Part shown: positions 6,501 to 56,860 of the stretch, piece by piece | How positions within the stretch are numbered: position 1 is the stretch's first letter | Layout: each line of letters starts with the position of its first letter | Assembly (NCBI GenBank): GCA_003586115.2 | Contig: QVOM02000021.1 | Span: 10,306,248-10,370,247, forward strand | Length of the DNA: 64,000 nucleotides | Direction: 5' to 3' | Origin: Salvator merianae | Lineage: Eukaryota > Chordata > Lepidosauria > Squamata > Teiidae | Made by a program: the position numbers and the translations under genes | The notes under the pieces: generated by a model | Seen by the model: only the letters and a program-made list of their open reading frames with translations | What the model was told of the DNA's origin: nothing | The model's database searches: none

Positions 6501-9500
6501 TATCATTTTCAATCCATTAACAGCCAGTAACTAAACAAAGGCCCTTTCTGCACGCTAGTGCAGACTATGGTAGGCCCTGGGCAAGACCTTTCATAGTTTG
6601 CACTAGCATATGGATGGCAGGTCCCTATTCTGAGATATAATCTACAATAAGGCCAAGTGCAGAAAGGGCCAAAGTGAAAGCTGTATATGATTATTTCTAA
6701 AGTTACTTTAGTATCTGGTAGCTGCCATCGGAATCAAACAGTTCTTTTTTTATCAAGTGTTATAAATTCAATGCAAGTGAAATACCCTTCACTCTATCAT
6801 GGCCATTAACTTCACAGACTCTCTGCATGTCTAAAAATAAGCCATTTACTCTACAACCTCTCTGTTCCAACACTGTCCATTTTATATAAAAGTTAGAACG
6901 AATATAACCATTTCTATGTGAGCATGATATAGTGGTCTTGGACTGTAATAAAAATTATAATGTTCGTGTGAAGTAGGATTTCAGGACATCCAGTTGAGGA
7001 GAAACGTATATAGCTCATTTCTGCATGTGGACTTATAAAAGGAACGTAGTTCTATTTACGTTGCTCCAGTGGAGCTTGCCAGTGTTAGATCTTGTTTTCA
7101 CTTGCTTACATCAATCCCAATTTGAGCAGGTAAAAAGAGAATTGCATTCCAGTTACTGCTCTGCTTTCACTGGAACAGAATAAATAAAAGCACATAACTA
7201 GCTGATAGCACGCATAGTTGCTGTGGTACCTTACATTAAGCAGACTTTCTAGATCAAAAGGGAAGAGGAAAATGAAAGAATTTATGCAAATCGTCACTAC
7301 AAAAGCTACTGATAGAAATCAACAATGCATATGCTGCTTGACCTGGCTGAAAATACTATACAATTTAATTTAAAAAAAACACTAAAAGCTATTTTCAGCA
7401 ATACATAAAAAACAACTACAGCAAAAATATAACAGTAATAGAGATAATTAAAAGGTAGCAATAATACTAGATAACTATAAATAAATGTAAAAAAAAGCTT
7501 TTAAATACCAAAAAATTAGCCTTCAGTACTTAGCTTATTTCGGAGAAAAATACTCGCAAGTCACATTGTAGTAGGTTGTAGTATAACCAGTAGGGGCCTT
7601 TTCTATAGATTTTAGTGAAAAAGCAGGTTTATTAAAGGAGGTGCTTTTTGAGACAAGTATCACACAGGCACTGATTTATATTTCCTGGAGGGGCACACTG
7701 GTAGTTTTCTCATGGCTGTAGTCTCTCCCATAATAAAACCAACCTCTTGAGAGGCATCATGGTGCTGATGTATCAAATTACCAGCCTCTCTTTAGGAATA
7801 TGAGATAGGACCACTACTATGAATCCAACATTAACAAAGAAACAGCCAGGTCACACTAGCAATATATAAGCAATGTATAAAATCTTAGGCCTTTTCTGCA
7901 TGGACCCTTAATGTGGATTAAGAGTCCAAGTAGTTCAAATCCAGGTCTCCAGATCCGCACGTTTCTATGGGTCTAGGAGGAGCTATTCCCTGCTGGTACG
8001 CCTCCATCTGCTTTCGATGGAGCCTGATCCAGATTAAGGAGGCCTTAATCTGGATCCCTGGCAGGCCCATTTAATCACCTCCTGTGTTTGGGACAACTGT
8101 GGGGCACATTTCAGCGGTACACCATAGTGCGTTGCTGATATGCACTCCCCCAAAGGCCACAAGGCTAGGAACTTTTGTTTCTAGTCCTCAGAGGTGTCGG
8201 GGTACAGCCACAAAGCTTGGATCAGTTTTGAGGCTGCAGCACGGGCTGACCTTTTCATGTTTGGGATCAGTAGGTTTGGCTATTCCAGATCCACTGATCC
8301 CAGCCAACTGCAGGCAAGTGCAGAAAAGGCCTTATATTCAAGCATGCTGAAGCACATCCCCTTTTCACTTAGGTTTCACATTTGTTCTATCTTTCAACAA
8401 ACAACCTTCCTGGATATTTTAAGAGATCACTGTTTAAAAAAAATAATATTTAGGCATGATGTCATATAGTCATATGTATTCTAGTTTTCAAAGTTTACTA
8501 TCATATCTGTAGATCATGCTTCATTCAGAACGTTAGGCTTTTACAGACTGAATCAGGAACAGCATGGGAAAATAAAGGATATGAGTAAAACTGGTTACCT
8601 TTTCTAATTTTTTGGCTTCAATATGGCGCAGCACCTGTTCTCTCCAATCATGGGGGACTTTACTTTTTCCTGGAGGATCGAGCAGAGAGTGTTCAGAGCT
8701 AACTCTTGAGTTTGTTCTTTTAGAAGGACTAGTCCTTGAGTAATTGAAATCACTAACTGACATAGTTCTCTCCGGTATCTCATTTGCTGAAGGTCGAGCA
8801 CTCTGAGGTCGTGATACATTTGGCCCATCAACACTGTAGGTTCTTGCTGAAAGTGGTCTCTGTGGCCCTGACATTACCGGGGGAACTCTTCCCATTGAGT
8901 GCAAATCCCTGTATGTTAAATAATCTCCTTCAGAAACATGAGGACGCCGAAGAGGTCCAGAATCACCAACATTCATGGAAGCAGTGGAAGAGACGCTACT
9001 CTGCCGCTGAAGAGTGTTTCGGGATGCTCCGGGAACAAGTCTTTCATTTGGTGAAACAGCCCACATTTCAATTTGCCTGCCACTTGGTCTTGTATGCATA
9101 TTATATGCAGCACTAGCTCTAACATTGTTATGGTTAGAGAAATTCATGTTTGCTGAGTGCTTCACAGAACTGCAAGTCTCTGTGGTATCTGATCTTTGCA
9201 AACGCTGAGGAGGCAAGCAGTTTTGCTCAACCAAGGAGTTTTGTTTTTGGGGCCACAAGGATTCTTTGGCTGCCATACTGCTGCTATATTGGATATTATA
9301 CTGGGGAGTGCTGAATGGTTGTGAAGTAGTTGCTCCTTGCCCTCTCACCACATTAGTATTTTCAGGATTATGATTTGAATCAAATTTGAACCCTGTTTTG
9401 GTACCTACTAAATCAGATGATGACGAACACCCAGCAAATACTTGTAACGGTTGGTCATAGAGGAGAGTAGCTGATTTGCTCCGGACTATGTTTTTTCCAT

Positions 9501-12500
9501 CTGGAACCATAACTGTTGGTTTAACCACTGGATTTGGCTGCTGGGATCCATTGTCATTAATAATATCATAAATTTTCAGAGCACCTGTGTCCATGTTAGT
9601 TATGCTATGAGATTTTATAACTGGCCCACTTCGTTGCGGTGATAAGTCTTCAGTGCTCTTCGAAAGACACATTTCTGAAGAAGAATCTGTGTCAATTGTC
9701 ACACTTCTCTTCAACTCCATTTTACCTTCAGAATGAAGCACTTCTGAAGAATGTCCGTTTATATTATTTACGGCAGACAAGTTGGAATACTTATTTCCAT
9801 TTTCTAAGGGTTCATTTTCTTTGATATTATTGTTTAAAATACCCTCCAGAGTTGACAATTCCTTTGTTTTTATTTGTTCTACCACATTTGACTGCACTCC
9901 TCCTTCATCCACCTTGCAAATATTCATATTAATTTGATGAAATGTGTGAGACTCATCAGTACTGGTGTTTAGCTCAACTCCTCTCTCTATCAGAGCTAAT
10001 CTCTCTTCAATGTTTAATCTGAATTCATTGAAATTTGAAATTTTATCTTGGGCATCCAACTTTTCTTCTGCTACAACATCTACTTCACTTCCATTTTGTA
10101 AAAGACTATTAGAATTTTCATCTTCTTGCCTGCAAGCAAAAAAACTGTTTAAAATTAAACAGTTTTCCTATAGTATTGTTCCTATAGTATTAAAGAGTTT
10201 ACTGATTACTTTTTACAACACCGAAATCAAAGGATGTCATGAATTGCAAAACAGAGCAATCTATCCTCTTGTCAAGACCTACAGAAGAGCAAGTGACATC
10301 ATGGCTAGAGTGACATGAAGAAGAAGAACTTGGTTTTTATACCCCGCTTTTCTCGGCAAAAGCTGACTCAAAGCAGCTTACAAGGTTATTTTTTGCCCAA
10401 AGGCTTACATCTGTCTATCTTCCGCATCACACAATGTGATGCTCCCAATTTATCTACTTGCAATTACTTGCTTTTGAACAGCTAGGTTGGCTGGAGCTAG
10501 AGGCCAGTAGAGGGCGCTCATCCCCTCTACACAGCAGACAGGGGCCTTGAACTCCGATCCTCCTATTGAAAGATCAGTGCCTTAGCCTTCTGCGCCACTG
10601 TGCCATGTTAGAACCTAGGGGTCTCTTAGTTCAAATCCTTACTGAGCCATGAAATATCACTAGGTCATTTGGGACCAGTCACAACCTTTTGCCTTAACCT
10701 AGCACAGAAGGTTGTTAGGATAAAATGGAGGGAAGGAGAATGGGGTGCACCAAATAGGGCTCTTTTGACAAAGGAGAGAATATAAAATGCTAATACAGTA
10801 GAGTCTCAATTATCCGTCCTTCGGTAATCCGACACTCTGGATTATCCGATGTCGCGGCTGCTTGGGGGCGTGGCTGTAGGCATTTCTGCACCCCAGACAC
10901 GCCCCCAAGCGCGGCAGCGGCGAGCAGGCATTTGCCGCAAGTTCCCTCTTTTGGGCCGACAGAAGCTCCGTTGCATCGAAGCTTCACACAGCCTTAAAGA
11001 GGGAACTTGCAGACCAATCGGAAACGTCAGAAAAATCAAGGTGAAGGGAAAGACCTTCACCTTGAATGTTCTGACGTTTCCGATCCCTCTCTCACCCTCC
11101 TAGTCTGTCAGTTGCGCGCGTGACTGCCAGACTGGGGGGGGGGAGGGAGGGATCGGAAACGGAGAAAAATCAAGGCTAAGGGAAGACCTTTGCCGCGAAG
11201 GTCTTCCCTTCGCCTTGATTTTTCTCCATTTCCAATCCCTCCCTCTCCCCCCCTAGTCTGGCAGTCGCACGGAATGAGACCCTCCGGATTATCTGACGGT
11301 CTCGGCTATCCGACCATCAGCCAGCCCGTTTACGTCGGATAGTCGAGACTCTACTGTACCCTGTAATTTTTTTTAATGCAACAAATAAATAAGTCCTGCC
11401 CAAACCTGGAGGACTGTGTTCATTGGAACTGTTTGATCAGGGATGATATGCCTCTAAAGGCCAGTGACTGAGGTACAGTGAGCAAGCTGTTGTGCTCACA
11501 CTGTGGTTGTGGCTTTCCATATATAACCAGTTGACTATTGTAAGAATAGGCTGCTGGATTAGACATAATCAATATAGGTAGGCTCACAAACAGGTTCAAA
11601 CACTAGTTTGTAGCATATGCAAAGAAGATGGGGTCTTGAGGATCTACATTTCATGAACATTGAGAGATGTTGAGCAGGTGAGCATTAACAGGGTAGATCT
11701 ATCTTCTTTGATCTCCTTACTTCCCATGCTTTCTCTTTTAATGACATCACCATCTGAGCTGTGGCCATTTTCACATGTTCCTCTAACCCTTACCAAGCCT
11801 GAACATGGCAGAAATAATGTTTTTCTGCCCCCCCTTCAGGCTTGGTAGGGTCAGAGAAAGCCTAAGAATGGCAGGACTGTTATGGCCCATGCAGTGACAT
11901 CACTGTAAGGCTCGCACCTGCCCCCTCCCAGCTGCAAAAGTAACTGGGGAAAAAAATCAAAGGGTTGGTGCTGTGGTACAGGCTTGGGGAATTACCTACA
12001 CATGTGGTGGACTTGCCCCTTAGTACAAACTTTTTGGAAAGTAGTGCTGAAATAGAAACTATACTTTGTGTCTCTATAGCTTGGACACCAGACCTGTGTA
12101 TACTGCGGAACTACAGAGCTACCCTTCTATCAAATCAACACTAAGACTCTTAGACTTTATGCTTTTAGCTGCTAAACAAGTGATGGGAACAAAATGGAAA
12201 TGTACTTTGCCATGTACTCTCTCAAGCTGGTATGTGTCTCTCTGGACAATAGTAAGATGGGACTGTATCAATACCCAGTTCCATAAGCTCCAGGGACAAA
12301 CTGATGGGTTATCCTTCTACAGAACCTGGCAAAAGTTCCTAACTTATGCACCATCATCCTTGGACTTTACCCCAGCAAAATATCATCCTCTGTTGCTGTT
12401 TTTTGATATACGTGTTCACGTATTTAAACAATAAAATTTATATATATATAAAAAGAACAACAGAGACAGGCAAATTTGACCTTTAATCTGTGTCACACTC

Positions 12501-15235
12501 ATCTGCCCCACACCTTCCCCTTGTTAGTGTAGAAGGCTTGGCTAGCAAGGTCTGGATCCCAGCCCTCTTTGGCAGGTTCTCCTGCTACAAACTAGCGTAT
12601 GAACTTGTTTGCCCACATACCATTCAAAATGTCATTGAGTAAAACAACACAGAAACTGAATCTGAAAAGAATTTCTATCCCAAATAAGCATTTGTTCTGG
12701 TTTTTTTCTCAAACCTGATTTTGGAAGTGATAGCCATGTTAGTTTCTTTTTCTGGAGAACACAGCGACACTTCACGACTACTATCGGTATTGAGAGAAAC
12801 GGAATCAGACATTCGAGAAGGAGAGGAACAATTGCTGTTGTTCTGATTGCTGTTCTGGGTGGGGTCATCTGACAACGAATCCACATCTTTGTTGCCATCT
12901 AAAAGGATGTAAATTTCATTTATGCATAGAGTTAGCTCATAGGAACAAACAACCTACAAATAATTTCATTACTGTTTTGGAAAATGATCTCTTATGAAAC
13001 TCAGCATTTCAGATCTAAGCAATTTCACCTAACATTTATTTTCTACTGATTAAAAGCTCAGTGTTGCCTACTGCTTAAATTAATCAAAATCTACCAAAGC
13101 TAGCCTTCCTGTTTTTCAAGACAGATGCATAACTATGGGAAATGCATTCCCTCTCTATGGTGGCACTGTAACTGTTTTAGCTTATTTATTGTATCTGTTT
13201 CTATAGTGATTTTATTGTAACCTACCCTGAGACCTTCAGGTATAGGGTGAAATAAAAACATAAAGCAATATAATAATATGCAGTAATATCATTAAGGAGA
13301 GATTTTTAAAAGGCAGGGGAAGTTAGTAAAGCCACAACTATAAACTGAAATTAGAATCCAAATGACTTTTACTCTGTGAAGGTTCAAACACAGATTTACA
13401 TTATAAATAACTGTTTCTCTTACGGCATCAATTCTGGAGAACTATTACAGACTTTAAGAGGTCTGTCCACTTGCTCTAACTGTGAAACTGACAAAGTATA
13501 TTCTGATCAAATAAAGACTACTTTCGCACTGTTTGGTACAAACTCGTGTTACATGCTGAAGCTGAAAAAATTACTCCACTATTTTCATACATTTAGTTGA
13601 TTATATAACTAGATGTTTATTTTTAATTTAAAGAATATTTCATCGGTGTATTCCTTATTAGCAATATGTTATATTTATTCCTATTGTGCAGATTTGTTCT
13701 TGTTGAAAAACGTTTCCAAAGCTGTTCTTTCAAATTGCAAACACTTTAAAGAAATAGAGTTGACTAGAATGCACATTTTATACCTGTTACTCAAGCACTA
13801 ATCAACATGATATGCAAAAATATGATCAAATAATTTAAATAGCATGACTACAAAGTACTGCAGCATAACAATTTCTATGAGGGGCACTAAAATGCATTAA
13901 TTGTTTTAACTACAAGTAAATTATGAACATTTATGAACATAAAAATCAAGAGAAGCTTTCATCATTTGGGAAGACTGTTGAAATCTACCTTTTTTGCTAC
14001 TGCCAAGTGCTACTACTTTTGGTTGGTTAATGGATGTTTCTATGAGGGGTGGTCTCATTTCAGCTATTTTCATTTCTTCATCAGAGGACAGTTCTTCTGA
14101 TTCCTACCAAAGGATGCAGACATAATACGATTATCAAAGTTTGCCAAAAATCAGTATAATCTGTCTAAACAATACCTTATGCACACCTAAGCATTTTTGC
14201 AAGTACCATGCACACTGAACATCTTCATTAGAATTCTTCACATCACACTGAAGCTATTCCTGAAGGAAATGGTTTATTGTCCAACTGTAATAAAAAAAAT
14301 CTGGACTTCAAAACAATATGGTATCTTCAGAATTTTCAGCTGTGCTTTTAGCTACAAATGCTGTTCTCATCATATTTGTAGCCCCTTAAGTGACAGGGGA
14401 AGTGCATTAAAAATACAATACCTCAAGAGTGTCTTCATGATTGGTAATTGGTTTTGTGTCCTCAGAGGTTTTAACTTGAGCACTCATCTGAAAGTTTTCA
14501 ATCTTGTTTTCAGCTTCTGGATCACTAGGCTTCTGTAAACAGTTCCCCATCACAATATGCTCTTCATCTTCCATTTTGTTCTTTGCTGGAGCAGTGTCTA
14601 AGGTCTATGGCAGATTTAAGCATGTTAACTAGTATGTACTGTGAAAATGACACTTATTTAGGAAAAGTTGTTCAGTAAAAATAGGCAACAAACAGTGTTG
14701 AGAACTTGAAGTTGTAATACAGTTGTCTCTCCTTACATGTGATTTCTTAGTGCTGTATATGGTTTCAGCTATGCACAAGAAACTGAACTAATCCTTTGGT
14801 CAGGAGTTTCTCTTGTACATAGTTGGGTTATCAAAGCAGTCTGGTCAGACAGCCACCCTCACTGTATGCAAAGAATGGCAACGGAATTCTGGAATATGAT
14901 TCTCTTTAACCCTCAGTTTTTCATTAAAGTCAACTGGTCCTTATATACTGTTTCACTATACACGCCCATTTTGTATGACCCAAACTATAGCATATAAGGA
15001 AAGGACAACTGTATTTTAACGTGAACAAGTATAATCCCTTCACCCTCCGCTTCTTGCCTTTCCTCTCAATTTTGACTGTATAAAATATACCTTTTATATT
15101 TTGTAACAGCATAGTACTGATTAAAAATATATTCAGAATTCAAAGGTTCTTCCCACTATTGAAAAGCAAAATAAAAATAACTGCTATATTCAGAATTCTT
15201 GCAATAATATTGCCATCTAGCTGTTTTTGTTTTTG

Positions 15236-21200: not shown

Positions 21201-23362
21201 TGCTGAAGTTTTGTAAAGCTGAAGGGCAAATATTTCAGCCTGCAAATAAAACACATGAGTATTACTTTTACCTAAAACAGGCCATAGACAAGGTAACATA
21301 GAAAAACTATACATTGGCATTATGGTCCTTTCTGCATCTGATTTTATCCCGGAATAAGGACCTGCCATCCACATACTGGTACAGACTATGGCAGGACCTG
21401 CCCAGGGCCTGGCATGGTCTGCACTAGCATGTGGATGGCAGTTCTCTATTGCAGAATAAAATGCTAAGTTTCTCAAGCAATTTTAGGAACTGTTGTCTAT
21501 GAAGCTTTGTTTACTTAACTAATCATTTACAGGGTATGAATTTTTTTAGAAATCAGATTCAGAATTTTTGGTAGATGTGAACTAATGTAACTGAGATCAT
21601 ACTAACATGTACTGTATATGAACATGCTTTATACATGGCATTGGTTACAGTATTAACAACTTTGGCTTTTCTTCAAATAGCACAGGTCAGCTGAGTTTCC
21701 CCAGGGATGGAAGCCCAGCAAAAATGACATTAACAGGTATTTCTGAGAAAAGAAAAAAATGTTAGCAAGCATTTCCTAACAGAAAGAACAAGTTCAAATA
21801 ATGACTGTCACAGTGCGTGCTTTTAGTGCCATCCAGCACCAGCAAAAAATGTCCACTGGTGTTTTTTGCAAAGCCTCACACTTATGCTGGGCTTCTGTTG
21901 CTAAGGAAGCCCAAATGATCTGTGGATATGGGGCTGAGAGCCGGGTCCCCTTCCAAAGCCCTAGAATTGGCTATTTAACAACAGATTTCCAGGTCTTTTG
22001 AAGCCTTTGCTTCAGTTAATGGACTTCTACTTCTGACCCAGGTATCCTACCTTACTTCGCATTTGCTACTCTTCATGAAAAACACAGACTACAAATCCCG
22101 TAAGTCCTGGCCAGCGCCAACTTGAAAAAAGCTGCTTTAGAACAAAATGATATGGGCAGATATTTTAATTTCTCAGTTTCTTCTTTAAATATTACTGGCA
22201 GGAGAATAATACAATAATTTAGTTAGCCATAAGTGCTTTAAAAAGACACAGAGTTGGCGACTTCGATCTTTTGATTTTATAACTGTTTGTGGATCATTAT
22301 TTTTAAATATTGCTTAGACCTGCAGAATAACTTCAGACATGCCAGTGTGATTTTAAAAAAATGTGGTGTGCTCTTCCTGCCTGCCTGCCATATATTCAGA
22401 GGTCACAGGGTGGGTCACAATCAAACCAGTATAAAACACAATTCCCAGGCAGTTTACCATGTTTATCAGCTACGCTGCTGATAAAATCCAAAGTTAACTG
22501 TAGATACACATAATGAGTTATAATACTATCACAATCCTAATCTATACCTGTTGCTGAGAAAACTATTTCTCAGCATCTTGAAAAAACATAACTCTCTGTA
22601 TTTGCATAATTATGTAATGTGCTCCACTGCCAAGCCATTAATTCTGTTTCACTCAAGAATATCGCCTACATGGCAACATGCAGAATTTTAAAACGGGAAC
22701 GACTAAACCACAGTAACAGAAAGTATCACTGTGACAAAATCTGAAGCAAATAGCAGCAAGCAACTACTCGCTTCCTCTTATCAGATACCACTGTATAAAC
22801 AATGTTTGCAGAACGAACAGCCAAAAATGTTTCAACAAAAGTCTTAACATCACTCTGTCTTGTTCAGATGACTGAACTACAGTTGCTATGACCCCTCACA
22901 ACTGGCTAGATAAGGTGGAGATTTAAGTCTAAAAGCATTTGAAGAACAGTACATTAGGGGATCCAGGTCATTAGAAATACGTGCAAGAATCACTTATCAG
23001 TTTCAGAAGAAATCGCTCCTAAATCCAACTACTTCTCATCTTGTCAACACAACTATAACCTCTGCCTCTACACATCTATCCCAACATTAAGCTCTTTCAA
23101 AGGCAACTCTACCATTAGGTGAACAACGGAAGATTCAACACTAGCTGGCATACCAGACCAGCAAGCCAACCAGGAGCCTCCCTTTCGCACACACCAGTGT
23201 TTGAATTAAAAAGTCATAAAGAACACATCTGTCTTCAAATGAAAGAACATGTGGGAACGGAAGAGCAGTATTCCAGGGACTGATACCTGGGAGGGGGTTT
23301 GCAGGCAGCCAACCAATCATTATTCAAACCAAAGAAATGGGTCCAGAGAACGGGAAAAGGGA

Positions 23363-26400: not shown

Positions 26401-29400
26401 TCCTAATATTATACAGAACCACAAATATGGAATAATCTGAAAACTGCAAGTCATAAAAAGTTCCTACAGTTCTGTAAAATGTTTATAGTTAACACTGAAC
26501 AATACACACCAATAGACTCTGGCAGCTGCTGCAGTGAATTGCTAGATAACAGCAGGTCTTGTAAACTTTCACATCCTGAAATGCCGTCCTCAAGCGTTTC
26601 AATATTGTTTTTGGAAACATCCAAGTACGCCAAGTGTTTCAAACTGCCCATAAACTGGTAATATACACAGAAAAAATAAAAACATTAAATTATGCACTGA
26701 CATAATTCACCATTTCCAATCACATCTTGTATTAACTAGCATGCATGTTGTCAAAATTCAAATCTGAGAACATTTTCCAGCTGAAGATGCTGACTTTTGA
26801 ACTGTAAACAATTCAGTTGATGTAGACACATTTCTCTTGCATGAGTTCAGGTATGATGATATGGCACTATTTCACTTTTCTGTTTCACAATTACCAATGC
26901 CTCTGAATGTATTTTATGTAGAATTAAGTATATTACATGAAATTTTCATGCTTCCATATTTTTCATCAAACACTTATTTTCATATGAACAGTTACGTTTT
27001 GAGTGTATTAAAGATGCAATTTCAACTATCTAACAACATATTCTATAGCAGTAAGGAGTGAAAACAAACCAACATAAAATTTGTTTAAAGACACTGTTAT
27101 CTTGTAAACTGTACTAAATAGGTTGAATATAAAGAATTTAAAGAATCGTATATACATACCCCTGGAATAAGAGTTAGTCTGTTACCGTCCATCCAAAATT
27201 CTTTTAACCCACTTAATTGTTCAAGTACTTCAGGCTGTTAAATAAATTTTTAACACAGATAATTTTAAATTGTATTACAGATTTATATTACCAGAAATAT
27301 ATGAATATAACCCAGCTATGGCTGTCCATCAAAGAAATGCACACAGTTGCTAACATGAATTTTCTCATTCCTTGCAGTCATCCAAAATTCTACATTGGAG
27401 AATTTGGGTTTTTTTCTGAAGCAGAAGAGGATGCTATATTGAAAAGAGGTATGGTATATGGAATGCTTGTGCAGGGTTTACACATACCCTCTGTTATGTT
27501 TTGTGAATTCTTTACTTTTTTCAACTCTTATTAAATTTGTGCGATCTTTACCTAGGATGATCAAATAGAAAGAAGAACAGGGTTTCACAGGGTTATGGTG
27601 ATAATAACAATAGGATGGAGAGACAGCCATCTGCACTGTCATCAAAAAAGCTGTACACTTTAGAATAGATTTTCTTGTGTAGACACACACTAGCCATACA
27701 CTCTCATATTTGCATACGTGAACAGAGTTACTGGCACGCGAAAAAAATTAGACATGGAAACTTTTTTTTGTAATTAAACATATTAACAAATACACTTTGC
27801 GTGTCACACAAAAGCCACACTAATGGGAAATGAAAACTCATGAAACGGTTAACATTTTTAAGAAATTAAAGCAATAAGATTCAGGCAACAGTTGTTCTAT
27901 TAAGTCAGCACTAAGCTGATTTTTCTATTTGACACTGATTAAAATTAAAGATAAAGAGCTTTTAGGAAATCTATGTTACGTAGCAAGAACTCACCACTTC
28001 TGTGAATTCATTACTTCCCAGGTCCAGTCTTTCCAGCTGGGTCAGTCGGTTCATGGTTCTACAGAAGGAAAAGATTAATAAGGAATTAGGTTTAAGGGGG
28101 AAAAAAAACACCAGTTACATTCAATCTTCTTGTGCTTATTATTAGTTAGGCATGTCTCTAAATCTGACATAGTTGACTGGCAAGTCATATATTCACAGTT
28201 AAACAATCATAAATCATTCATACTAAAAAAAAACAAGCTAGAATTCAGCTATAGTAGAGTCTCGACTATCCGACATAAACGGGCGGGCTGATAGTCGGAT
28301 AGCCGAAACCATCGGATAATCCGGAGGGTCTAAGAAAAGCCTTGTTTTGGGGCCTGGAGGTACTCGCCCTGCTCGCTGCCACCGCCGCCGCCACGCTTGG
28401 GGGCGTGTTTTGGGGCGAGGTTTCACTCGCCCTTCTCTCCTTGCCCGTCGCGGCCGCCATGTTTGGGGGCGTGTCTACAGCCACGCCCCCAAGCAGCCGC
28501 GACATCGGATAATCCAGAATGCCGGATGGCTGAAGGACGGATAATCGAGACTCTACTGTATTATCAAATTTAATTAAAAACATGTTATTATCTCCCAGCT
28601 CATTCCAAAACCTATTCCTTCCTCTTCATGTTCTGCCTTGAATTTCATTTTTTCAACTCGTGAGAAACTACCACCATGAATTCTGAATATGAATTTTGCA
28701 GTTATATTTCATTTTCTTTTTACACTGTACTATGTATTAACATAGATCCTACTATGTATTAACAAAGACCTATCTCCACTTTCAAGGAAAACTATCTCTA
28801 CCATCTTCCTATTTGAAGATTACAAACTGAAGTAAATCCCATTGAAATCAATGAGATTTTTTAATGACTAGACTAATGCTTCTTCAATCATTCATATCCC
28901 ATTTTTATGATTTCTGCCATATTTTGAACAACCAGAATTATTTAAATTTAGAATTGTTTTACTTAAACAAATGTAAAAAATGATTTGGTTCCCATGGTAT
29001 TAAAATAATATCAAATACTCTGACATTTTAGATAACAACCTAGAAGATGGCTTTAACCAGTAGTATGTTTACCTAACTTTGGGGAACATTATAGGTTAGA
29101 TATTACAGGAAGTAGTGGTCCCCAGTTTTACCAACTTAGTAATTATTTACTGGATTTATGCAGCCTGTCAACAACTGAAGTTACAAAACTAATTAAAAAT
29201 TAATTAAATTTTATTTTAAAAATATATAAAATACTGTACATACAATAAACCACTAACAATTTAAAGTTATGCGCCTGTCTATTATCTAAAATGTCAAGAT
29301 TAATTTTAAAAAAGATCTTCACCTGATGCCAAAAGAATGTAGAATGATGGCATCAGATGAACCCTCTAGGAAAGCTGCTACAAATTCTGGGACAGAAGGC

Positions 29401-44400: not shown

Positions 44401-46342
44401 TTTGAACGCTGTTCCCCACATGGAGCAATGCAGCAGCAAGAAGACAGATATAGGTAAGGAGTATACAGGGAATATCGCTGGAAGCCAGAAACAAAAAGGA
44501 TCATGAAAACCTAAGTAACTGTGCTGAAGATGCATTTTACACAGACTCCAGAGAATGAAAGGTAATCTGCCAAAAGCCAAGTTTCATCTTTCAGTGTCTT
44601 ATGCAGCACCTGCAGTTTAGTGATCTAAAGCAACAGACAGTGTATAGCTGAAGGTATCCCACCTGACTGCAGTAAGCTACAGTTAATATTAAACGGTGCA
44701 TGAATACTGAGCTCCCATTAGGAGGCAATTAACTAAGCCTTTGTTGCCATGATTCTGATAACTATGATAAGGATTATTCAGTAAGAGAGATCATGTGATA
44801 TAGTGGTGAAAGTCTGGACAGAAAGGGGAATGGAAATCTCTACTGGAGACATGGGGTCCTTTAACTTGTCCCACCTTGCAAAATGATTCTGCGAACAATG
44901 TAATAAATAACAGCAATCATTACTATAGGTATTTGTGATGTGTATGTTTAAATATGGACATAAAATAGAGCCAATAACTTCATGAGGTAATAAATATTCT
45001 TAGATATTATGATCTTACATTATGGATGACTCTCAATCATAAAAACAATCCAGTATAGTTACCACAGTTGGCACAAACAATTTTTGCAATTTTGTAGTAA
45101 CAAAGTTCTCATAATGTTATATCCTAAGCTGCTTAAAACTATCATTAAGTAGTCTGGGGCTGGTCATGGAATTTACCAGACTTATCACACCAGCTTGAGT
45201 CCTGGTGAAAGCGTTACATCTGCACCTATATTCACCACATCTATACATCAATGCTGCTTGTTATACATTAACTTGCTTTGTATCTGTATATGCATAACTC
45301 ATTGTCAAAGATACAGAACAGAATGAAGGAAAGTTCATATAAGAGTAAGGTTAGTGGAAGGCAAACTAATATCCATTTGATCTCTTAACTACAGTTGCGA
45401 GGGGAGTGGATTTGCTGAGAGTTTGGGAACAGCAGTGAAATTTATCACCTAATATAATGAGCTACCCTTTTAGTAATGGCTGCTGTTGGTGACCCAATCA
45501 CCAGTAGCACTTCCAAAAGCACCCTGCTATCCCAGGACATTGTGGAGAGAGAAAAAATTCAGAACTGGAAAAAAAAAAAAAGATGACTGATAGTAGGATC
45601 TGTCATTCTTCTTCCCACCTTATCTCATGTGTAGAGTAATACTATATTCAGAGTACTTAGTAGAGATAAAGGAGGAAATGGCAGCCATATTACTGAGATG
45701 GAATTGCTTCTGTACCTGCAGCAGTGGCAAATACAGTTTTGGCAGGGAAGGTAAGCCATTATCCTAGTGGTCACTCTCACTACCTCCTAAAATCCAGAAC
45801 AATAGCTATCAGATTTTCTTTTTATGAGTGATGACACCCCTAAACAGTGGTGTTAGAAATTTATTACTAGCACAAGATCTTATATTTTATAATAGCGGCA
45901 TAGAACATTAATTATTAGATAAAAAACAGAAGATCAGGCACTTATCCTTCTATATAGTCTCTCTCTCTCAAAGACACATACACAATATTAAAACATTACC
46001 AGCTGTAGCTGCTTCCGCAGCATCACTCAGGATCTGGAGTTTTACCTGTCAAAATCAGTTGTTGGAGCAGATCAACAAATTGCAACAAATAATTCAGTAA
46101 GGCATTCCAGTTGCTTGTTGCCAAATGCTCTGACTGTGACATACCTTTGGAAGCTCCTCAATTTGATTAGCGTCTAGGTACAGCTCTTCCAATGTCTTTT
46201 CAAAAGTAAAGATCTCCTTAGGGACCTGCTCCAGGCTGCAGTGAGAGTAATCAAGTGCAGTGACAGTTTCTTCTTCTCCACGTAAACAGCGGCATGGCAC
46301 TAACCGCACAAATAAGTTCCGCTTTGTGGTCATTTTCAGGCA
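448..46342 (-). CDS. ERBIN: ERBIN (LAP2) gene, coding exons c1-c20, 3' part outside window
   Basis: Twenty exons joined on the minus strand give one uninterrupted frame of 1252 codons that closely follows mammalian ERBIN, a LAP-family scaffold. ERBIN sits on the basolateral membrane of epithelia and at neuromuscular and desmosomal junctions, and binds ERBB2, SMADs and p120-type catenins. Visible order: palmitoylation-type N terminus (Cys14, Cys16), leucine-rich repeats about residues 24-402, acidic linker to about 690, then a long Ser/Pro-rich region to 1204 and a 48-residue cassette. The C-terminal PDZ domain known in the family is not in the window; it must be encoded below position 1. Every internal exon has AG/GT borders, and each exon length agrees with the codon count of its translation. 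Exon numbers c1-c20 count coding exons only; at least one upstream non-coding exon is expected. Identification rests on protein similarity recalled from memory, not a database search. Confidence 0.96.
6540..6670. mobile_element. Short Harbinger-like MITE with 14-bp terminal inverted repeats
   Basis: 131 bp bounded by perfect inverted GGCCCTTTCTGCAC / GTGCAGAAAGGGCC. AAA lies on both sides, compatible with a 3-bp target duplication. The interior contains a smaller imperfect palindrome (GTGCAGACTATG...CATAGTTTGCAC). It has no coding capacity. The same interior recurs at 21324-21464, and the terminal motif recurs at 7888-8331. The superfamily call rests on the 3-bp duplication and is inference. 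Confidence 0.65.
7888..8331. mobile_element. Harbinger-like non-autonomous element with TTA target duplication
   Basis: 444 bp starting GGCCTTTTCTGCAT and ending GTGCAGAAAAGGCC, flanked on both sides by TTA (7885-7887 and 8332-8334). The TTA duplication is typical of PIF/Harbinger transposons. It contains internal inverted segments (AATGTGGATTAAG...CTTAATCTGGAT) and no transposase. The open frames at 8084-8469 lie inside or across this element and are not genes. Confidence 0.7.
8599..10129 (-). CDS. ERBIN: ERBIN large coding exon c19, residues 694-1204
   Basis: 1531 nt with acceptor CAG and donor GTAACC; 510 codons plus one base. This single exon encodes the long low-complexity middle of ERBIN. 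Strongly conserved islands are [16 protein letters not shown] (about residues 910-925), [19 protein letters not shown] (from about 1123), [19 protein letters not shown] (from about 1147) and the basic [17 protein letters not shown] at the end. In mammals the latter half contributes to SMAD binding and carries phosphoserines. The first quarter (residues 694-830) is more diverged. The frame continues past the donor into the intron (VTSFTH...), which is read-through. Confidence 0.96.
10318..10606 (-). mobile_element. tRNA-derived SINE, minus orientation
   Basis: Read on the minus strand it starts with a tRNA-like head. The A-box-like AGTGGCGCAGAAGG lies at 10586-10599 and a B-box-like GGAGTTCAAGG at about 10544-10556. 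The body includes the phrase complementary to TATACCCCGCTTTTCTC and CAAAGCAGCTTACAA, common in reptile SINEs, and the tail is a short GAA-type repeat at the left end. The head is tRNA-like but cannot be a working tRNA because no cloverleaf is kept. Confidence 0.7.
10796..11356. mobile_element. Tigger-like (Tc1/mariner) non-autonomous element, copy 1
   Basis: 561 bp flanked by TA on both sides (10794-10795, 11357-11358). Ends are CAGTAGAGTCTCAATTATCC and the inverse of CAGTAGAGTCTCGACTATCC. Subterminal repeats of the TTATCCGA type are present at both ends. The interior is CpG-rich and made of nested palindromes, such as GAAGGTCTTCCCTT against AAGGGAAGACCTT around 11179-11211. No transposase frame. 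The segment 10928-11275 is homologous, in inverted orientation, to the core of the hAT-like element at 48832-49412. Confidence 0.8.
11960..12440 (+). mobile_element. L1-like LINE, ORF2 C-terminal remnant
   Basis: Conceptual translation gives [17 protein letters not shown], then later [14 protein letters not shown] and [16 protein letters not shown] and [11 protein letters not shown]. These are the order and spacing of the cysteine/tryptophan region at the C terminus of L1-type ORF2 proteins. Frameshifts separate the blocks. It ends in an AATAAA-containing, A/T-rich tail near 12430-12455, as expected for a LINE 3' end. Orientation is opposite to ERBIN. Confidence 0.7.
12715..12898 (-). CDS. 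ERBIN: ERBIN coding exon c18, residues 633-693
   Basis: 184 nt with acceptor TAG and donor GTTTGA. It encodes the Asn/Ser-rich segment [20 protein letters not shown] followed by [20 protein letters not shown], with split codons at both ends. Likely disordered, with many Ser/Thr that could be phosphorylated; the mammalian counterpart is nearly identical around the Asn/Ser run. Confidence 0.94.
12899..13988 (-). other. ERBIN intron c17-c18 (1.1 kb)
   Basis: AT-rich. The stretch 13175-13262 (TTTATTGTATC...CCTACCCTGAGACCTTCAGGTATAGGGTG...AATAAAAA) resembles the 3' tail shared by many reptile SINE/LINE copies. Nothing else recognised. Confidence 0.6.
13989..14103 (-). CDS. ERBIN: ERBIN coding exon c17, residues 595-632
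   Basis: 115 nt with acceptor TAG and donor GTAGAT. It encodes [20 protein letters not shown] then [18 protein letters not shown], an acidic Ser-rich stretch and a proline-containing motif that closely match mammalian ERBIN. Ends with one base of Asp633. Confidence 0.94.
14104..14421 (-). other. ERBIN intron c16-c17 (318 bp)
   Basis: Short AT-rich intron; no repeat or RNA gene recognised. The plus-strand open frame across it (14197-14538) reads antisense through exon c16 and is a shadow. Confidence 0.7.
14422..14604 (-). CDS. ERBIN: ERBIN coding exon c16, residues 534-594 (divergent)
   Basis: 183 nt, phase 0 at both ends, acceptor TAG, donor GTATTG (poor match after GT). The translated acidic linker runs [20 protein letters not shown] to TNHEDTLE. 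It aligns only loosely with the matching mammalian linker, so this is the least conserved coding exon in the window. The assignment relies on position, open frame, phase and scattered identities such as VMGN/QK.PS/PEAE. Confidence 0.85.
14720..15011. mobile_element. Tc1/mariner-like MITE with TA target site
   Basis: 292 bp flanked by TA (14718-14719 and 15012-15013). The left end is CAGTTGTCTCTCCTTACATG and the inverted right end CAGTTGTCCTTTCCTTATAT, about 80% identical. No coding capacity. The ends are unlike those of the Tigger-like copies at 10796 and 28252, so this is a different family. Confidence 0.65.
15240..15287. repeat. (TA)n(CA)n microsatellite
   Basis: A run of about 15 TA units directly followed by about 8 CA units, with a T-rich run before it. 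A compound dinucleotide repeat, likely length-polymorphic. Confidence 0.95.
15928..16098 (-). CDS. ERBIN: ERBIN coding exon c15, residues 477-533
   Basis: 171 nt, phase 0 at both ends; acceptor TAG, donor GTAAGC. It begins [20 protein letters not shown] and continues with a helix-prone stretch ([13 protein letters not shown]), then a divergent Lys/Glu/Gln-rich tail ending KDVGIK. The first half is strongly conserved, the second half is not. Confidence 0.94.
16099..17597 (-). other. ERBIN intron c14-c15 (1.5 kb)
   Basis: The right part (17000-17597) is ordinary AT-rich intron. The left part (16193-16560) is GC-richer with inverted repeats and is listed separately. A poly-C/poly-T run lies near 16624-16643. 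Confidence 0.65.
16193..16560. repeat. Hairpin-containing, GC-rich putative DNA-transposon remnant
   Basis: A strong hairpin occupies 16195-16258: GGTCTGTTC pairs with GAACAGACC and AGCTTAGAATG with CATTCTAAGCT. A second inverted pair, GTGTTCACA...TGTGAACAC, lies at about 16472-16502. Overlapping open frames on both strands at 16269-16557 come from this symmetry. Ends and target duplication are not resolved, so the class is unknown. Confidence 0.45.
17598..17719 (-). CDS. ERBIN: ERBIN coding exon c14, residues 436-476
   Basis: 122 nt with acceptor TAG and donor GTATGT. It encodes [20 protein letters not shown] and [20 protein letters not shown], an acidic, highly conserved ERBIN segment; phase 0 at its end. 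Confidence 0.95.
17720..20204 (-). other. ERBIN intron c13-c14 (2.5 kb)
   Basis: AT-rich on the left (17720-18290). From 18534 the sequence TTAGGCCATTTCTGCACTTA resembles the left end of the Harbinger-like family, but I found no matching right end, so it is probably truncated. A palindromic segment at 19840-19985 is listed separately. No gene seen. Confidence 0.6.
19840..19985. repeat. Palindromic repeat, member of a three-copy family in this window
   Basis: An inner hairpin TGTTGGGATTGCCA...TGGCAATCCTAATA lies at about 19917-19958, bordered by AAACCTAGG and CCTGGTTTT. Related segments occur at 30475-30600 and 49671-49770, each with a GGGATTG/CAATCCC-type inner arm. Probably a MITE; ends not resolved. 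Confidence 0.45.
20205..20304 (-). CDS. ERBIN: ERBIN coding exon c13, residues 403-435
   Basis: 100 nt with acceptor CAG and donor GTAGGA. It encodes the region just after the LRR array ([20 protein letters not shown] and [13 protein letters not shown]) and one base of Val436. This is the LAP-specific segment that follows the repeats in ERBIN, Scribble-type and Densin-type proteins. Confidence 0.94.
20305..21169 (-). other. ERBIN intron c12-c13 (865 bp)
   Basis: AT-rich with short A runs (21109-21121, 21152-21160). No repeat family or gene recognised. Confidence 0.65.
21170..21239 (-). CDS. ERBIN: ERBIN coding exon c12, residues 379-402 (last LRR)
   Basis: 70 nt with acceptor CAG and donor GTAAGA. 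It encodes [20 protein letters not shown] then DNQ, the final leucine-rich repeat, and ends in phase 0. A partial Harbinger-like MITE lies about 85 bp upstream in the preceding intron. Confidence 0.94.
21324..21464. mobile_element. Partial Harbinger-like MITE, relative of 6540-6670
   Basis: The left end GGTCCTTTCTGCAT resembles the 6540 element. The interior is an imperfect palindrome: CTGCCATCCACATACTGG...GCTAGTGCAGACC equivalents, with CTAGCATGTGGATGGCAG on the other arm, shared with 6540-6670. The outermost right inverted repeat is missing or decayed. Confidence 0.5.
23360..23429. repeat. (GAAA)n microsatellite
   Basis: About 17 uninterrupted GAAA units on the plus strand, so the ERBIN pre-mRNA carries (UUUC)n. 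Confidence 0.97.
24538..24653 (-). CDS. ERBIN: ERBIN coding exon c11, residues 341-378 (LRR)
   Basis: 116 nt with acceptor CAG and an unusual donor GTTTGT. It encodes [20 protein letters not shown] followed by [18 protein letters not shown] and two bases of Arg379. Near-identical to the mammalian LRR segment. Confidence 0.95.
24962..25004. repeat. (ATC)n(ATT)n microsatellite
   Basis: About nine ATC units grading into about six ATT units. Confidence 0.95.
25260..25389 (-). CDS. ERBIN: ERBIN coding exon c10, residues 297-340 (LRR)
   Basis: 130 nt with acceptor CAG and donor GTACAG, a weaker-than-average donor. It encodes two LRR units ([20 protein letters not shown] and [17 protein letters not shown]) and ends in phase 0. 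Confidence 0.95.
25548..25765 (-). mobile_element. CR1 (L3-like) LINE fragment, minus orientation
   Basis: Phrases complementary to a CR1-type 3' region are readable: CTAGTCCACTAATCTGTTCTCACAGTGGCCAA, then GCTAGTAGCTATTGATGCCCTTGTCTTCCGTGAATCTGTCCAA. The same order of blocks appears at 47890-48125 and, inverted, at 51215-51440. It lies within the c9-c10 intron, in the same direction as ERBIN. Confidence 0.7.
25912..25984 (-). CDS. ERBIN: ERBIN coding exon c9, residues 273-296 (LRR)
   Basis: 73 nt with acceptor CAG and donor GTAAGT. It encodes [20 protein letters not shown] then SIG, one full LRR; split Gly codons at both ends join it to c8 and c10. Confidence 0.94.
26510..26654 (-). CDS. ERBIN: ERBIN coding exon c8, residues 225-272 (LRR)
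   Basis: 145 nt with acceptor CAG and donor GTGTGT. It encodes two LRRs including [19 protein letters not shown] and [18 protein letters not shown], plus one base of Gly273. Small substitutions relative to mammals (for example ETLEDG where mammals have a slightly different acidic stretch) are at non-consensus LRR positions. Confidence 0.95.
27160..27234 (-). CDS. ERBIN: ERBIN coding exon c7, residues 200-224 (LRR)
   Basis: 75 nt, phase 0 at both ends. Acceptor CAG after a pyrimidine/A tract, donor GTATGT. It encodes [20 protein letters not shown] then TLIPG, one LRR unit. Because the exon is symmetric and codes exactly 25 residues, skipping would delete one repeat without a frameshift. Confidence 0.94.
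27995..28058 (-). CDS. ERBIN: ERBIN coding exon c6, residues 178-199 (LRR)
   Basis: 64 nt with acceptor TAG and donor GTGAGT. It encodes [18 protein letters not shown] then TEV, ending in phase 0. A Tigger-like transposon (28252-28558) inserted about 190 bp from its acceptor. Confidence 0.94.
28252..28558. mobile_element. Tigger-like (Tc1/mariner) non-autonomous element, copy 2
   Basis: 307 bp flanked by TA (28250-28251, 28559-28560). The inverted ends match copy 1 at 10796-11356, and the element sits in the opposite orientation to it. The outer ~80 bp are shared (CGACATAAACGGGC, GGATTATCCGATGTCGCGGCTGCTTGGGGGCGTGGC), but the interior is a different CpG-rich cargo of CCACGC/GCGTGG-type motifs. 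The first base of the left end is C-to-T changed. No transposase. Confidence 0.8.
30475..30600. repeat. Palindromic repeat related to 19840-19985 and 49671-49770
   Basis: ATATCCTGGGATTTTGCT...TGTATTGGGATTGT pairs with CCACAATCCCAGTATGG...GGGATACTCTTGGG. Unresolved MITE-type remnant. Confidence 0.45.
30975..31060. repeat. Fragment of a dispersed reptile repeat
   Basis: CCAGGTTTTATAGACTTCAACTGCCATCATTCACGATCCC...ATGTGTAGCCAAAACATATGGAAG resembles the frequent reptile motif in which an 'acaactcccatcatccc' block and an 'agtccaaaacatctgga' block flank a centre. Only a decayed piece is present; family not assigned. Confidence 0.4.
32068..32150. other. Short CpG-dense patch in an AT-rich intron
   Basis: CAGCGGCGGTCC, TTCGCTCC, CATCGCCGTTCGCGGGGCC and CCGTAGTGACGC occur within about 85 bp, while the surrounding kilobases are nearly free of CG. 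Too short for a CpG island. It could be a young GC-rich transposon fragment or a small regulatory patch. Confidence 0.4.
33332..33388 (-). CDS. ERBIN: ERBIN coding exon c5, residues 159-177 (LRR)
   Basis: 57 nt, the smallest exon found and too short to stand out as an open frame. Acceptor CAG, donor GTAAGT. It encodes [18 protein letters not shown], a single canonical LRR, with split codons at both ends that join to c4 and c6. Confidence 0.94.
33389..35310 (-). other. ERBIN intron c4-c5 (1.9 kb)
   Basis: AT-rich intron with no repeat, RNA gene or coding segment that I recognise. Confidence 0.6.
35311..35400 (-). CDS. ERBIN: ERBIN coding exon c4, residues 129-158 (LRR)
   Basis: 90 nt with acceptor TAG and donor GTAAGT. 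It contains the repeat [20 protein letters not shown] and ends FG plus two bases of Arg159. The intron to c3 is only 126 bp, the shortest in the window. Confidence 0.95.
35527..35605 (-). CDS. ERBIN: ERBIN coding exon c3, residues 103-128 (LRR)
   Basis: 79 nt with acceptor CAG and donor GTAAGT. It encodes [20 protein letters not shown] and onward to NPIS, plus two bases of Lys129. It continues the LRR array. The translated length (25 full codons plus split codons at both ends) fits the phases of c2 and c4. Confidence 0.95.
37470..37540 (+). mobile_element. tRNA-derived SINE head (degenerate)
   Basis: TAGTTCAGTGGTAGAGCA (37476-37493) matches a Pol III A box and GGTTCAATCC (37520-37529) a B box, at tRNA-like spacing. 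The sequence between, and the lack of a 3' acceptor stem partner, argue against a functional tRNA. The wording resembles the tRNA-derived head of common squamate SINEs; the body is not preserved. Confidence 0.6.
38168..38230. repeat. (GGAA)n microsatellite
   Basis: About 15 perfect GGAA units on the plus strand; (UUCC)n in ERBIN pre-mRNA. Confidence 0.97.
40190..41600 (-). mobile_element. L1-like LINE, ORF2 C-terminal remnant, minus orientation
   Basis: Minus-strand translation contains [18 protein letters not shown] and [20 protein letters not shown], the pattern seen in L1-type ORF2 upstream of its C-terminal cysteine/tryptophan region. Further on it gives a degenerate [15 protein letters not shown] and [19 protein letters not shown]. 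Many stops and frameshifts separate the blocks. The phrase TTTCTTGGTGAAT(T/C)ATTAGCCA occurs twice (about 40759 and 41499), suggesting an internal duplication or two overlapping copies. Boundaries are approximate. Confidence 0.6.
42182..42239. repeat. (AAGG)n microsatellite
   Basis: About 13 perfect AAGG units on the plus strand. Confidence 0.97.
43729..43846 (-). CDS. ERBIN: ERBIN coding exon c2, residues 64-102 (LRR)
   Basis: 118 nt between acceptor TAG and donor GTAAGC. It encodes 39 codons plus one base of Gly103. Two leucine-rich repeat units are readable ([20 protein letters not shown], then [12 protein letters not shown]). The residues are essentially those of the mammalian protein, as expected for the LAP-family LRR domain. 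Confidence 0.95.
43847..46144 (-). other. ERBIN intron c1-c2 (2.3 kb)
   Basis: AT-rich intron. A run of A (45571-45582) and a CT run near 45957-45968 are the only simple features. No gene or repeat family recognised. Confidence 0.65.
46145..46342 (-). CDS. ERBIN: ERBIN coding exon c1: 9-nt 5'UTR, start codon, residues 1-63
   Basis: The acceptor AG is at 46343-46344. Nine untranslated bases precede the ATG at 46331-46333, which has A at -3, a favourable Kozak context. The donor GTATGT follows codon 63. The protein begins [19 protein letters not shown]; Cys14 and Cys16 match the two cysteines known to be palmitoylated in mammalian ERBIN and needed for membrane targeting. The first leucine-rich repeat ([16 protein letters not shown]) starts near residue 28. 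The open frame extends 22 codons upstream of this ATG, but that part lies in the intron beyond the acceptor, so the shorter start is chosen. The exon ends in phase 0. Confidence 0.95.
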
Positions 46343-48831: not shown

Positions 48832-49412
48832 TAGGGATGTGCACGAAGGCACTTTTCCCTTTTCGCTTCGCAGCGCTGCGAAACTCCTAGGCTTCGTTTT
48901 CGCTTGAAAACCAGGGGCACTGCCTGTCACAGAGGCAGCACTTCACGATTGGCGAAGGTCTTCCCTTCGCATTGATTTGTCTCCGTTTCCGATCGCTCTC
49001 TCATTCCCCCTAGTCTGTCACTCGCACGCGCGCACTGACAGACTAGGGGGAATGAGAGAGCGATCGGAAATGTCAGAAAAATCAATGCAAAGGGAAGACC
49101 TTCGCCGATCGCTAAAGTTAAGTGCTGCCTATCACAGAGGCAGCACTTAACTTTAGCGATCGATTTTTCTGACGTTTCCGATCGTCAAGTTCCCTCTTTA
49201 AGGCTGTGAAGAATCCGGCTTCGATGCTACGGAGCTTCTACGGCCAAAAAGAGGGAGCCTGCGGCAAATGGCAAGGGTCTCGAAGGACAGCGAAAGTCGC
49301 CGGGACCTTCGCCATTCGCTACCCCCTTTTACCTTCGTATTTCGTGCGAAGATGGCGGAAATGCCATTTTCGCACGAAATTCGAAAGGCACGAAGCTTCA
49401 TGCACATCCCTA
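48832..49412. mobile_element. hAT-like non-autonomous foldback element with 8-bp target duplication
   Basis: 581 bp. The left end TAGGGATGTGCACGAAG and inverted right end TAGGGATGTGCATGAAG are flanked by a perfect 8-bp direct repeat AATCACAC (48824-48831 and 49413-49420), the hAT signature. The interior is almost entirely hairpins. One covers about 48953-49106, with GATCGCTCTCTCATTCCCCC and its inverse around 48991-49062. A second is CGCTAAAGTTAAGTGCTGCC and its inverse (49110-49161). A third is TTCGTGCGAA/TTCGCACGAA (49341-49379). Near-perfect arms suggest recent insertion. Open frames at 49198-49597 lie in it and are not genes. Confidence 0.85.
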
Positions 49413-49670
49413 AATCACACTACTTTAAGATCCCTAACAAGGCAGAGCCTTCTATGGAATCACTGCTAGTAGCAAAATCAAGTCACAAAAGTAGTTTAAT
49501 AGCAGATGTACTATTACACATATCTAAATCAAGATGCTCAAGGAGACCACTGTCTCCTCCCCAGCACTGCCTTTCAGCATATCTACACAGTACATGACAT
49601 ACACAACCTTCATATCAGGCAGGCAAATCACCATGCAATTGCCATCAGACATCCAAGTGAGCCTCTAGTC

Positions 49671-56702: not shown

Positions 56703-56860
56703 TTTAATCATAGAATCACTGAGTTAGAAGGGACCTCCAGGGTCATCGAGTCCAAGCCCCCTGCTCAATGCAGGATTCACTAAACCATCCCAAACAGATA
56801 TCTGTCTAGTCTCTCCTTGAAGACCTCCGGTGAAAGAGAGCTCACCAGCAAACGTCTTGC
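56703..56860 (-). mobile_element. CR1 LINE 3' end, minus orientation
   Basis: The inverse complement reads GAGGTCTTCAAGGAGAGACT...GGGATGGTTTAGTGAATCCTGCATTGAGCAGGGGG...GACTCGATGACCCTGGAGGTCCC...GATTCTATGATT. This matches the 3' end of the CR1 copy at 60168-61061 almost word for word. Truncated at its 5' side. Confidence 0.9.

What the first reader, a model, noticed from the sequence alone, without database searches (positions are those of the whole stretch)
10928..11275. A ~330-bp palindromic core is shared between a Tigger-like and a hAT-like element
The element at 10796-11356 has TA target sites and CAGTAGAGTCTC ends (Tc1/mariner type). The element at 48832-49412 has an 8-bp duplication and TAGGGATGTGCA ends (hAT type). 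Yet 10928-11275, read inverted, is collinear with about 48946-49270. Shared blocks in the same order: GGTCTTCCCTT..CCTTGATTT, TCTCCGTTTCCGATC, the CTAGTCTG hairpin with its CGCGCG-type loop, GATTTTTCTGACGTTTCCGAT, and an ~80-bp block from CAAGTTCCCTCTTTAAGGCTGTG to GCGGCAAATG. The hAT copy has an extra 55-bp palindrome in the middle. Transposons of different superfamilies are not expected to share internal sequence. Capture or exchange of a hairpin cassette, or nested insertion followed by re-mobilisation, is the inference.
Basis: partly seen in the sequence, partly recalled or inferred. Interest (0 to 1): 0.78.

Follow-up and report, generated by a model that had tools for sequence, protein, structure and literature searches.

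The report
Tigger MITE built from hAT pieces
A family of short jumping-gene elements of one kind (Tigger) carries hairpin-rich interiors taken, apparently more than once, from unrelated short elements of another kind (hAT), and several of the resulting hybrids have themselves spread in this animal genome.

Summary
Element A (10796-11356, Tigger-type, TA target sites) and element B (48832-49412, hAT-type, 8-bp duplication) share a collinear, inverted, palindrome-rich core. In the source genome the core sits behind constant junctions in many copies of both families, with TA sites for one and 8-bp duplications for the other. It is not a free cassette: 12 of 12 hAT copies fetched by their left end carry it, whereas close Tigger relatives lack it (window 28252-28558; L100, L112, L114). 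Of 32 Tigger copies examined among the 40 best left-end hits, 8 carry the core with its first hairpin, 12 other parts of the same array entered at different points, 6 a second array also found in a sister hAT family, 2 only a short hAT subterminal piece, and 4 no detected hAT DNA. No hAT ends were found inside core-bearing Tigger copies, so simple nesting is unlikely; five of eight left-junction classes overlap by 3-8 nt. Best reading: a Tigger MITE lineage repeatedly copied pieces of hAT MITE interiors by template switching, and Tigger-type transposition multiplied the chimeras. New variant of a known kind.

The parts
10796..11356 (+). Element A: Tigger-type (Tc1/mariner superfamily by its ends) non-autonomous element, 561 bp
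   Evidence: inverted ends 10794-10816 / 11336-11358; TA on both sides; same structure in many genome copies
10794..10795 (.). TA target site, left
   Evidence: sequence; TA/TA (L008)
11357..11358 (.). TA target site, right
   Evidence: sequence; (L008)
10929..11279 (+). hAT-derived core inside A; left junction GAGCAGG|CATTTGCC, right junction GGAATGAGA/CCCTCC with AGA (11277-11279) common to both parents
10937..11010 (+). H1 hairpin of the core in A (two 37-nt arms, 78% complementary)
11017..11084 (+). first Y palindrome in A (31-nt arms, 94%)
11117..11271 (+). large palindrome in A (77-nt arms, 90%): X half, Y, X half; its right end is a truncated X
48832..49412 (-). Element B: hAT-type non-autonomous element, 581 bp, of a subfamily that also includes L133
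   Evidence: ends, 8-bp duplication read, L133
48824..48831 (.). AATCACAC target duplication, left
   Evidence: sequence
49413..49420 (.). AATCACAC target duplication, right
   Evidence: sequence
48951..49270 (-). core of B, collinear with A in inverted orientation
49106..49162 (.). palindrome special to the B subfamily (25-nt arms, 100%)
   Evidence: also in L133
28252..28558 (-). Tigger-type relative of A without the core; positions 1-87 and 482-560 of A match it at 92% each

Best explanation
The core is the interior of a hAT MITE family: one hairpin followed by alternating palindromes. A Tigger MITE lineage acquired pieces of such interiors by copying them during DNA repair or stalled replication (template switching at short homologies), on several occasions and from at least two sister hAT families. 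Each chimera that kept both Tigger ends stayed a substrate for a Tigger-type transposase and multiplied at TA sites. Shown here: shared sequence, junctions, target sites, empty relatives, hAT as the family in which the core is general in the sample, and several different Tigger interiors. Inferred: the template-switch mechanism, the number of separate events, and the transposase.
For: Direction: 12 of 12 hAT copies fetched by the left end (of 40 scored hits) carry H1 directly after it, while Tigger relatives lack it (window 28252-28558; L100, L112, L114). Of the first 53 of 144 exact matches of a 20-nt core word, 45 are hAT-flanked, 7 Tigger-flanked, 1 odd. hAT ends and H1 are 1.7-2.4 times as diverged between copies as those of core-bearing Tigger copies. 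Junctions: of 18 extracted core-bearing Tigger copies (two near-duplicate pairs among them), all 18 have the right junction GAATGAGAC, 14 the exact left junction and 4 the same with one substitution. Right junction: hAT GAATG-AGA-GAGCG, empty Tigger TTCTT-AGA-CCCTCC, chimera GAATG-AGA-CCCTCC. Mobilised: of 40 core loci, 18 have Tigger ends with TA/TA, 14 hAT ends with identical 8-bp duplications, 3 hAT ends with one mismatch, 5 no complete pair. Recurrence: among 32 Tigger copies with A-like left ends, 8 H1-bearing core, 12 other X/Y parts, 6 second array, 2 only a 28-29-nt hAT subterminal piece, 4 none detected. The second array is 84-88% identical over 222-237 columns between Tigger L136, L137, L138, L142 and hAT-ended L140, L141 (best three matches each). 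Painting with 10-mers gives overlaps at left junctions of 8 nt (L098, L101, L104, L108, L120), 6 (L119), 4 (L107, L109) and 3 (L116, L118).
Against: Three of eight left-junction classes show no overlap or a gap: the H1 type, L099 and L102; within the AAACA class L118 overlaps by 3 nt but L103 and L105 have a 3-nt gap. A tree of 139-198-nt core pieces is star-like, its bootstrap had not settled, the Tigger label needs 4 changes by parsimony, and a single Tigger clade is merely not rejected (p-AU 0.751). Different Tigger interiors could come from fewer captures plus later deletion or recombination with empty copies. 10-mer painting has a background: one shuffled hAT set covers 1164 of 10470 bases against 3319 observed. 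The lower Tigger divergence is biased, since the 40 loci were the best matches to A's core. The hAT left-end query ran up to the core boundary, which may favour copies with an intact boundary; the right-end search did not complete. One core-free hAT-type element with similar end words was met (L018:2594-2924); by eye its interior is of another family. In the second-array comparison L117 matches the second hAT family at only 74-79%, and L111 and L115 were assigned from their sequence, not aligned. No transposase gene was sought.
Confidence: 0.82

Rival explanations
1. One capture only: a single ancestral Tigger element took in a long hAT array, and all other interiors are later deletions, expansions and recombinations with empty Tigger copies.
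For: Core copies in Tigger are compatible with one clade; both families vary the number of Y-X units, so the array rearranges readily; L101 and L104 share the right junction of the H1 type although their left junction differs.
Against: The 18 H1-type copies lack the Tigger stretch GGGCAAGGAGAGAAGGGCGAG (up to 4 mismatches) that L098, L101, L104, L108 and L120 keep, and keep the GCGAGCAGG end that those five lack (up to 1 mismatch), so neither derives from the other by deletion alone. Six of 32 copies carry a second array found also in another hAT family. L107 and L109 carry only hAT subterminal DNA, in the other orientation.
Confidence: 0.25
2. The traffic ran the other way: the palindrome array arose in Tigger and was captured by hAT.
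For: The array occurs in both, and Tigger interiors are more varied in layout.
Against: Core present in the 12 of 12 hAT copies sampled by their left end but absent from Tigger relatives; the sister hAT family has related ends and a related array; L107 and L109 carry a hAT subterminal piece; the H1-type Tigger copies end in a truncated X palindrome that is whole in hAT.
Confidence: 0.06
3. Nested insertion: a hAT element jumped into Tigger and its ends were lost later.
For: Would also give hAT DNA inside Tigger.
Against: No hAT end word (up to 2 mismatches) in the 18 core-bearing copies; among 26 further Tigger copies one such match, in L107, which by eye is Tigger's own TAGGCATGTCCA. The same junctions recur, so any loss would have preceded the spread.
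Confidence: 0.07
4. The core is a third, independent mobile element that entered both families.
For: It is a compact, palindromic unit.
Against: Of 53 exact core-word places examined, 52 lie in Tigger or hAT flanks and one is odd; it ends at different points in the two families.
Confidence: 0.05

Closest known systems
MER6 / MER6A (PMC6887750; abstract and section 2.4 read)
   Same: A Tc1/mariner MITE whose interior comes from an unrelated transposable element and which then spread as a chimera.
   Different: There the interior is a V-SINE body; here it is the interior of hAT DNA-transposon MITEs, with several different pieces and at least two hAT source families within one Tigger family.
Pack-TIRs and the fork-stalling/template-switching/transposition model (PMC8277862; abstract, outline and passages seen)
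   Same: TIR transposons that capture sequence by gap filling or template switching with short microhomology (median 2 bp there), multicopy ones spreading by transposition.
   Different: The passages seen speak of non-TE fillers; here the filler is another transposon's palindrome array.
Galileo foldback-like elements (PMC4168063; passages seen)
   Same: DNA transposons restructured by tandem-repeat expansion and recruitment of internal sequence; template switching in gap repair is discussed.
   Different: Restructuring within one family (P superfamily), not between superfamilies.

Membership tests
Tigger/pogo group of Tc1/mariner (element A) | TA target-site duplication | tested here: met
   TA/TA in the 18 of 40 core loci that have complete Tigger ends
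Tigger/pogo group of Tc1/mariner (element A) | terminal inverted repeats of Tigger type (CAGTAGAGTCTC...; the type is recalled, from no call) | tested here: inconclusive
   23-nt inverted ends, 91%; no reference Tigger sequence was compared
Tigger/pogo group of Tc1/mariner (element A) | mobilised by a pogo-type DDE transposase | not tested
   no transposase search was made; genome search was mostly unavailable
hAT superfamily (element B) | 8-bp target-site duplication | tested here: met
   B: AATCACAC; of 40 core loci 14 identical, 3 with one mismatch
hAT superfamily (element B) | short terminal inverted repeats (TAGGGATGTGCA, hAT-like by recall) | tested here: inconclusive
   17-nt inverted ends, 94%; no reference hAT sequence was compared
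hAT superfamily (element B) | mobilised by a hAT transposase | not tested
   none sought
MITE | short and present in many copies | tested here: met
   elements 278-715 bp (Tigger) and 555-1295 bp (hAT); 820 and 3103 first-look candidates by the ends, 40 scored each
MITE | no coding capacity | tested here: inconclusive
   no stop-to-stop frame of 110 aa or more lies wholly inside A or B; frames overlapping B and the empty Tigger copy run past them; genome copies not tested
Pack-TIR | TIR transposon with captured sequence and microhomology at breakpoints | tested here: met
   three of eight left-junction classes without overlap
Pack-TIR | captured sequence is not itself transposon DNA | tested here: not met
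   filler is hAT MITE interior

The most novel reading that the evidence does not exclude
Palindrome arrays of hAT MITEs act as a recurrent donor pool from which a Tigger MITE family renews its interior: hairpins stall repair or replication and drive template switches, the arrays expand and shrink in both families, and carrying such an array helps a non-autonomous element to transpose or persist, so that successful interiors pass between superfamilies independently of the ends.
Probability: 0.2. Interest if true: 0.75.

Novelty: new variant of a known kind. Interest (0 to 1): 0.6.

Why it matters
Families of non-autonomous transposons are usually named and dated by ends and interior together. 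Here the two have separate histories: interiors pass across superfamilies. That affects repeat annotation (a core match does not tell the family), gives a system of many junctions in which template switching between transposons can be measured, and lets one ask whether hairpin-rich interiors help MITEs to multiply.

Tried and rejected
A scan of viral contigs with a 17-nt core word gave 7 matches, taken as chance and not followed. Literature: eight searches of a limited full-text library listed no paper that by title or abstract describes interiors shared between Tigger and hAT MITEs; only three papers were opened. Nested insertion and a free cassette were considered and rejected (see rivals). 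The tree of core pieces was too star-like to count events. Divergence was used only as a comparison between families. Only part was fetched: 26 of 34 further left-end Tigger hits, 12 of 40 hAT left-end hits (chosen among those not already held), and 8 second-array places chosen by me, not at random.

Full report
OBSERVATION. Element A (10796-11356) and element B (48832-49412) share a palindrome-rich core in inverted orientation: 85% over 114 columns and 84% over 136 columns within the window, the whole alignment 229/326 with gaps. The local score is 204 against at most 31 in 500 dinucleotide shuffles. A has Tigger-type ends with TA target sites; B has hAT-type ends with the 8-bp duplication AATCACAC. 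The family names rest on the target sites measured here and on recall for the end sequences. The window also holds a Tigger-type relative of A without the core at 28252-28558.

CONTEXT IN THE GENOME. The window lies in a 2.05-Gb genome of 1816 contigs. A search with the core gave 3177 first-look candidates, of which 40 were scored. In 40 core loci from that list (L008-L047), 18 have Tigger ends with TA/TA, 14 hAT ends with identical 8-bp duplications, 3 hAT ends with one mismatch, and 5 (L013, L032, L034, L037, L047) no complete pair. L016/L017, L019/L021 and L044/L045 are near-duplicate pairs. An exact 20-nt core word occurs 144 times, its reversed control 0 times. Of the first 53 listed places, 50 were classified by flank: 44 hAT (43 by flank, L061 by its ends), 5 Tigger, 1 odd (L077, an inverted neighbour of L076, which the looser rule counts as hAT). 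In 30 of the 44 hAT-flanked places complete ends with at most 2 mismatches in the duplication were found, in 14 not. The 3 others were already held (L020 hAT; L037 and L047 Tigger).

ANATOMY. The core is a hairpin (H1) followed by alternating palindromes Y and X. hAT copies have one to three Y-X units before a last Y (555-611, 737-773, 913-923 bp); Tigger copies have none to two such units, then Y and half an X (408-414, 543-567, 710-715 bp). B belongs to a subfamily with an extra palindrome, seen again in L133.

JUNCTIONS. Of 18 extracted core-bearing Tigger copies, 14 have exactly GAGCAGG|CATTTGC on the left, 4 (L014, L016, L017, L041) the same with one substitution, and 18 of 18 have GAATGAGAC on the right. 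The empty Tigger reads TTCTTAGACCCTCC there and the hAT core reads GGGGGAATGAGAGAGCG in many of the copies shown, so AGA is common to both, and the second arm of the last X is missing in Tigger. The left junction has no overlap. No hAT end word lies in these 18 copies at up to 2 mismatches.

DIRECTION. A search with the hAT left end gave 3103 candidates, 40 scored. I fetched 12 of those 40, chosen among places not already held; 12 of 12 carry H1 right after the end, though L128 and L135 are shortened further in. The query ran up to the core boundary, a possible bias. hAT copies differ more from each other than core-bearing Tigger copies: mean pairwise K2P 0.146 and 0.098 at the two hAT ends (17 copies) against 0.060 and 0.057 for Tigger (16 copies); 0.085 against 0.046 in H1. 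These loci were the best matches to A's core, which favours low Tigger divergence. In the H1-Y part, Tigger-hAT identity averages 91% with a maximum of 98.7%; L035 matches L022 at 96% over its bases 137-326. The best reading is that the core is hAT DNA and Tigger the recipient.

RECURRENCE. The Tigger left end (87 bp of A) gave 820 candidates, 40 scored. I examined 32 of these 40: A, five known loci, and 26 fetched. Interiors: core with H1 8 (A, L013, L014, L018, L032, L043, L110, L121); other X/Y parts 12 (L098, L099, L101-L105, L108, L116, L118-L120; L102 and L116 only short parts); second array 6 (L106, L111, L113, L115, L117, L123); a 28-29-nt hAT subterminal piece 2 (L107, L109); none detected 4 (L100, L112, L114, L122). 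The sample is biased towards A-like left ends, and 10 of the 26 were read only for their first 400 bases or so. The best hAT matches of the X/Y-only copies are 79-90% identical. Eight left-junction classes can be told apart by eye, with overlaps from 10-mer painting: GGCGAGTGA class 8 nt (five copies), L119 6, L107/L109 4, L116 3, AAACA class 3 in L118 but a 3-nt gap in L103 and L105, and none for the H1 type, L099 and L102. The painting has background (one shuffled hAT set covers 1164 of 10470 bases, observed 3319).

SECOND ARRAY. A search with the second array (L117) gave 2785 candidates, 40 scored. Of 8 places that I chose, 4 have both Tigger ends and TA/TA (L136, L137, L138, L142), 1 has one Tigger end (L139), and 3 have hAT ends (L140 and L141 with one mismatch in the duplication, L143 with none). 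Array identity between those 4 Tigger copies and L140 or L141 is 84-88% over 222-237 columns. Of the six second-array copies among the 32, four were compared: L123 85% over 230-234 columns, L113 89-92% and L106 86-88% over 90-98 columns, L117 74-79% over 220-237; L111 and L115 were not. Ends plus adjoining array of this second hAT family match the first at 68-73% in long gapped alignments, so an array of this kind probably belongs to the hAT lineage.

MECHANISM. Best reading: during repair of a break or a stalled fork in a Tigger copy, synthesis switched to a hAT copy at short shared words, copied part of its interior and switched back; elements keeping both Tigger ends could then be moved by a Tigger-type transposase. 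The sequence facts are shown; the mechanism, the number of events and the transposase are inferred. The literature offers the parts: composite MER6 (PMC6887750, abstract and section 2.4), gap filling and template switching in Pack-TIRs (PMC8277862, abstract and passages), restructuring of Galileo (PMC4168063, passages).

LIMITS. One genome, unnamed; no orthologous loci; genome search answered five times; small samples of large families; no transposase sought; a tree of short core pieces cannot count events.

Noticed in passing
window 8533-10167 (-) and 46094-46459 (-): A 544-codon stop-to-stop frame and a leucine-rich-repeat exon; the LRR exon matches SHOC-2 and other LRR chains. By recall they look like ERBIN, so A and B could lie in introns or flanks of one gene.
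   Followed up: partly
window 60162-60980 (+): 272-codon frame resembling the 3' part of a CR1-type LINE reverse transcriptase (by recall).
   Followed up: no
L018:2594-2924: Another 331-bp hAT-type element with an identical 8-bp duplication TTCTTAAT and similar end words but without the core.
   Followed up: no
L076/L077 (G000:C79:17031384-17031595): Two core starts facing each other within about 210 bp, one with a non-hAT-looking flank; possibly an inverted rearrangement.
   Followed up: no
window 56706-56847 and 60913-61053; 13162-13268 and 63009-63113; 6554-6644 and 21340-21466: Other repeat pairs within the window (90%, 81%, 78-82% identity), families not identified.
   Followed up: no
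L140 (G000:C134:7528700-7530300): hAT-ended element of 1295 bp with a long run of second-array units, suggesting array expansion.
   Followed up: partly
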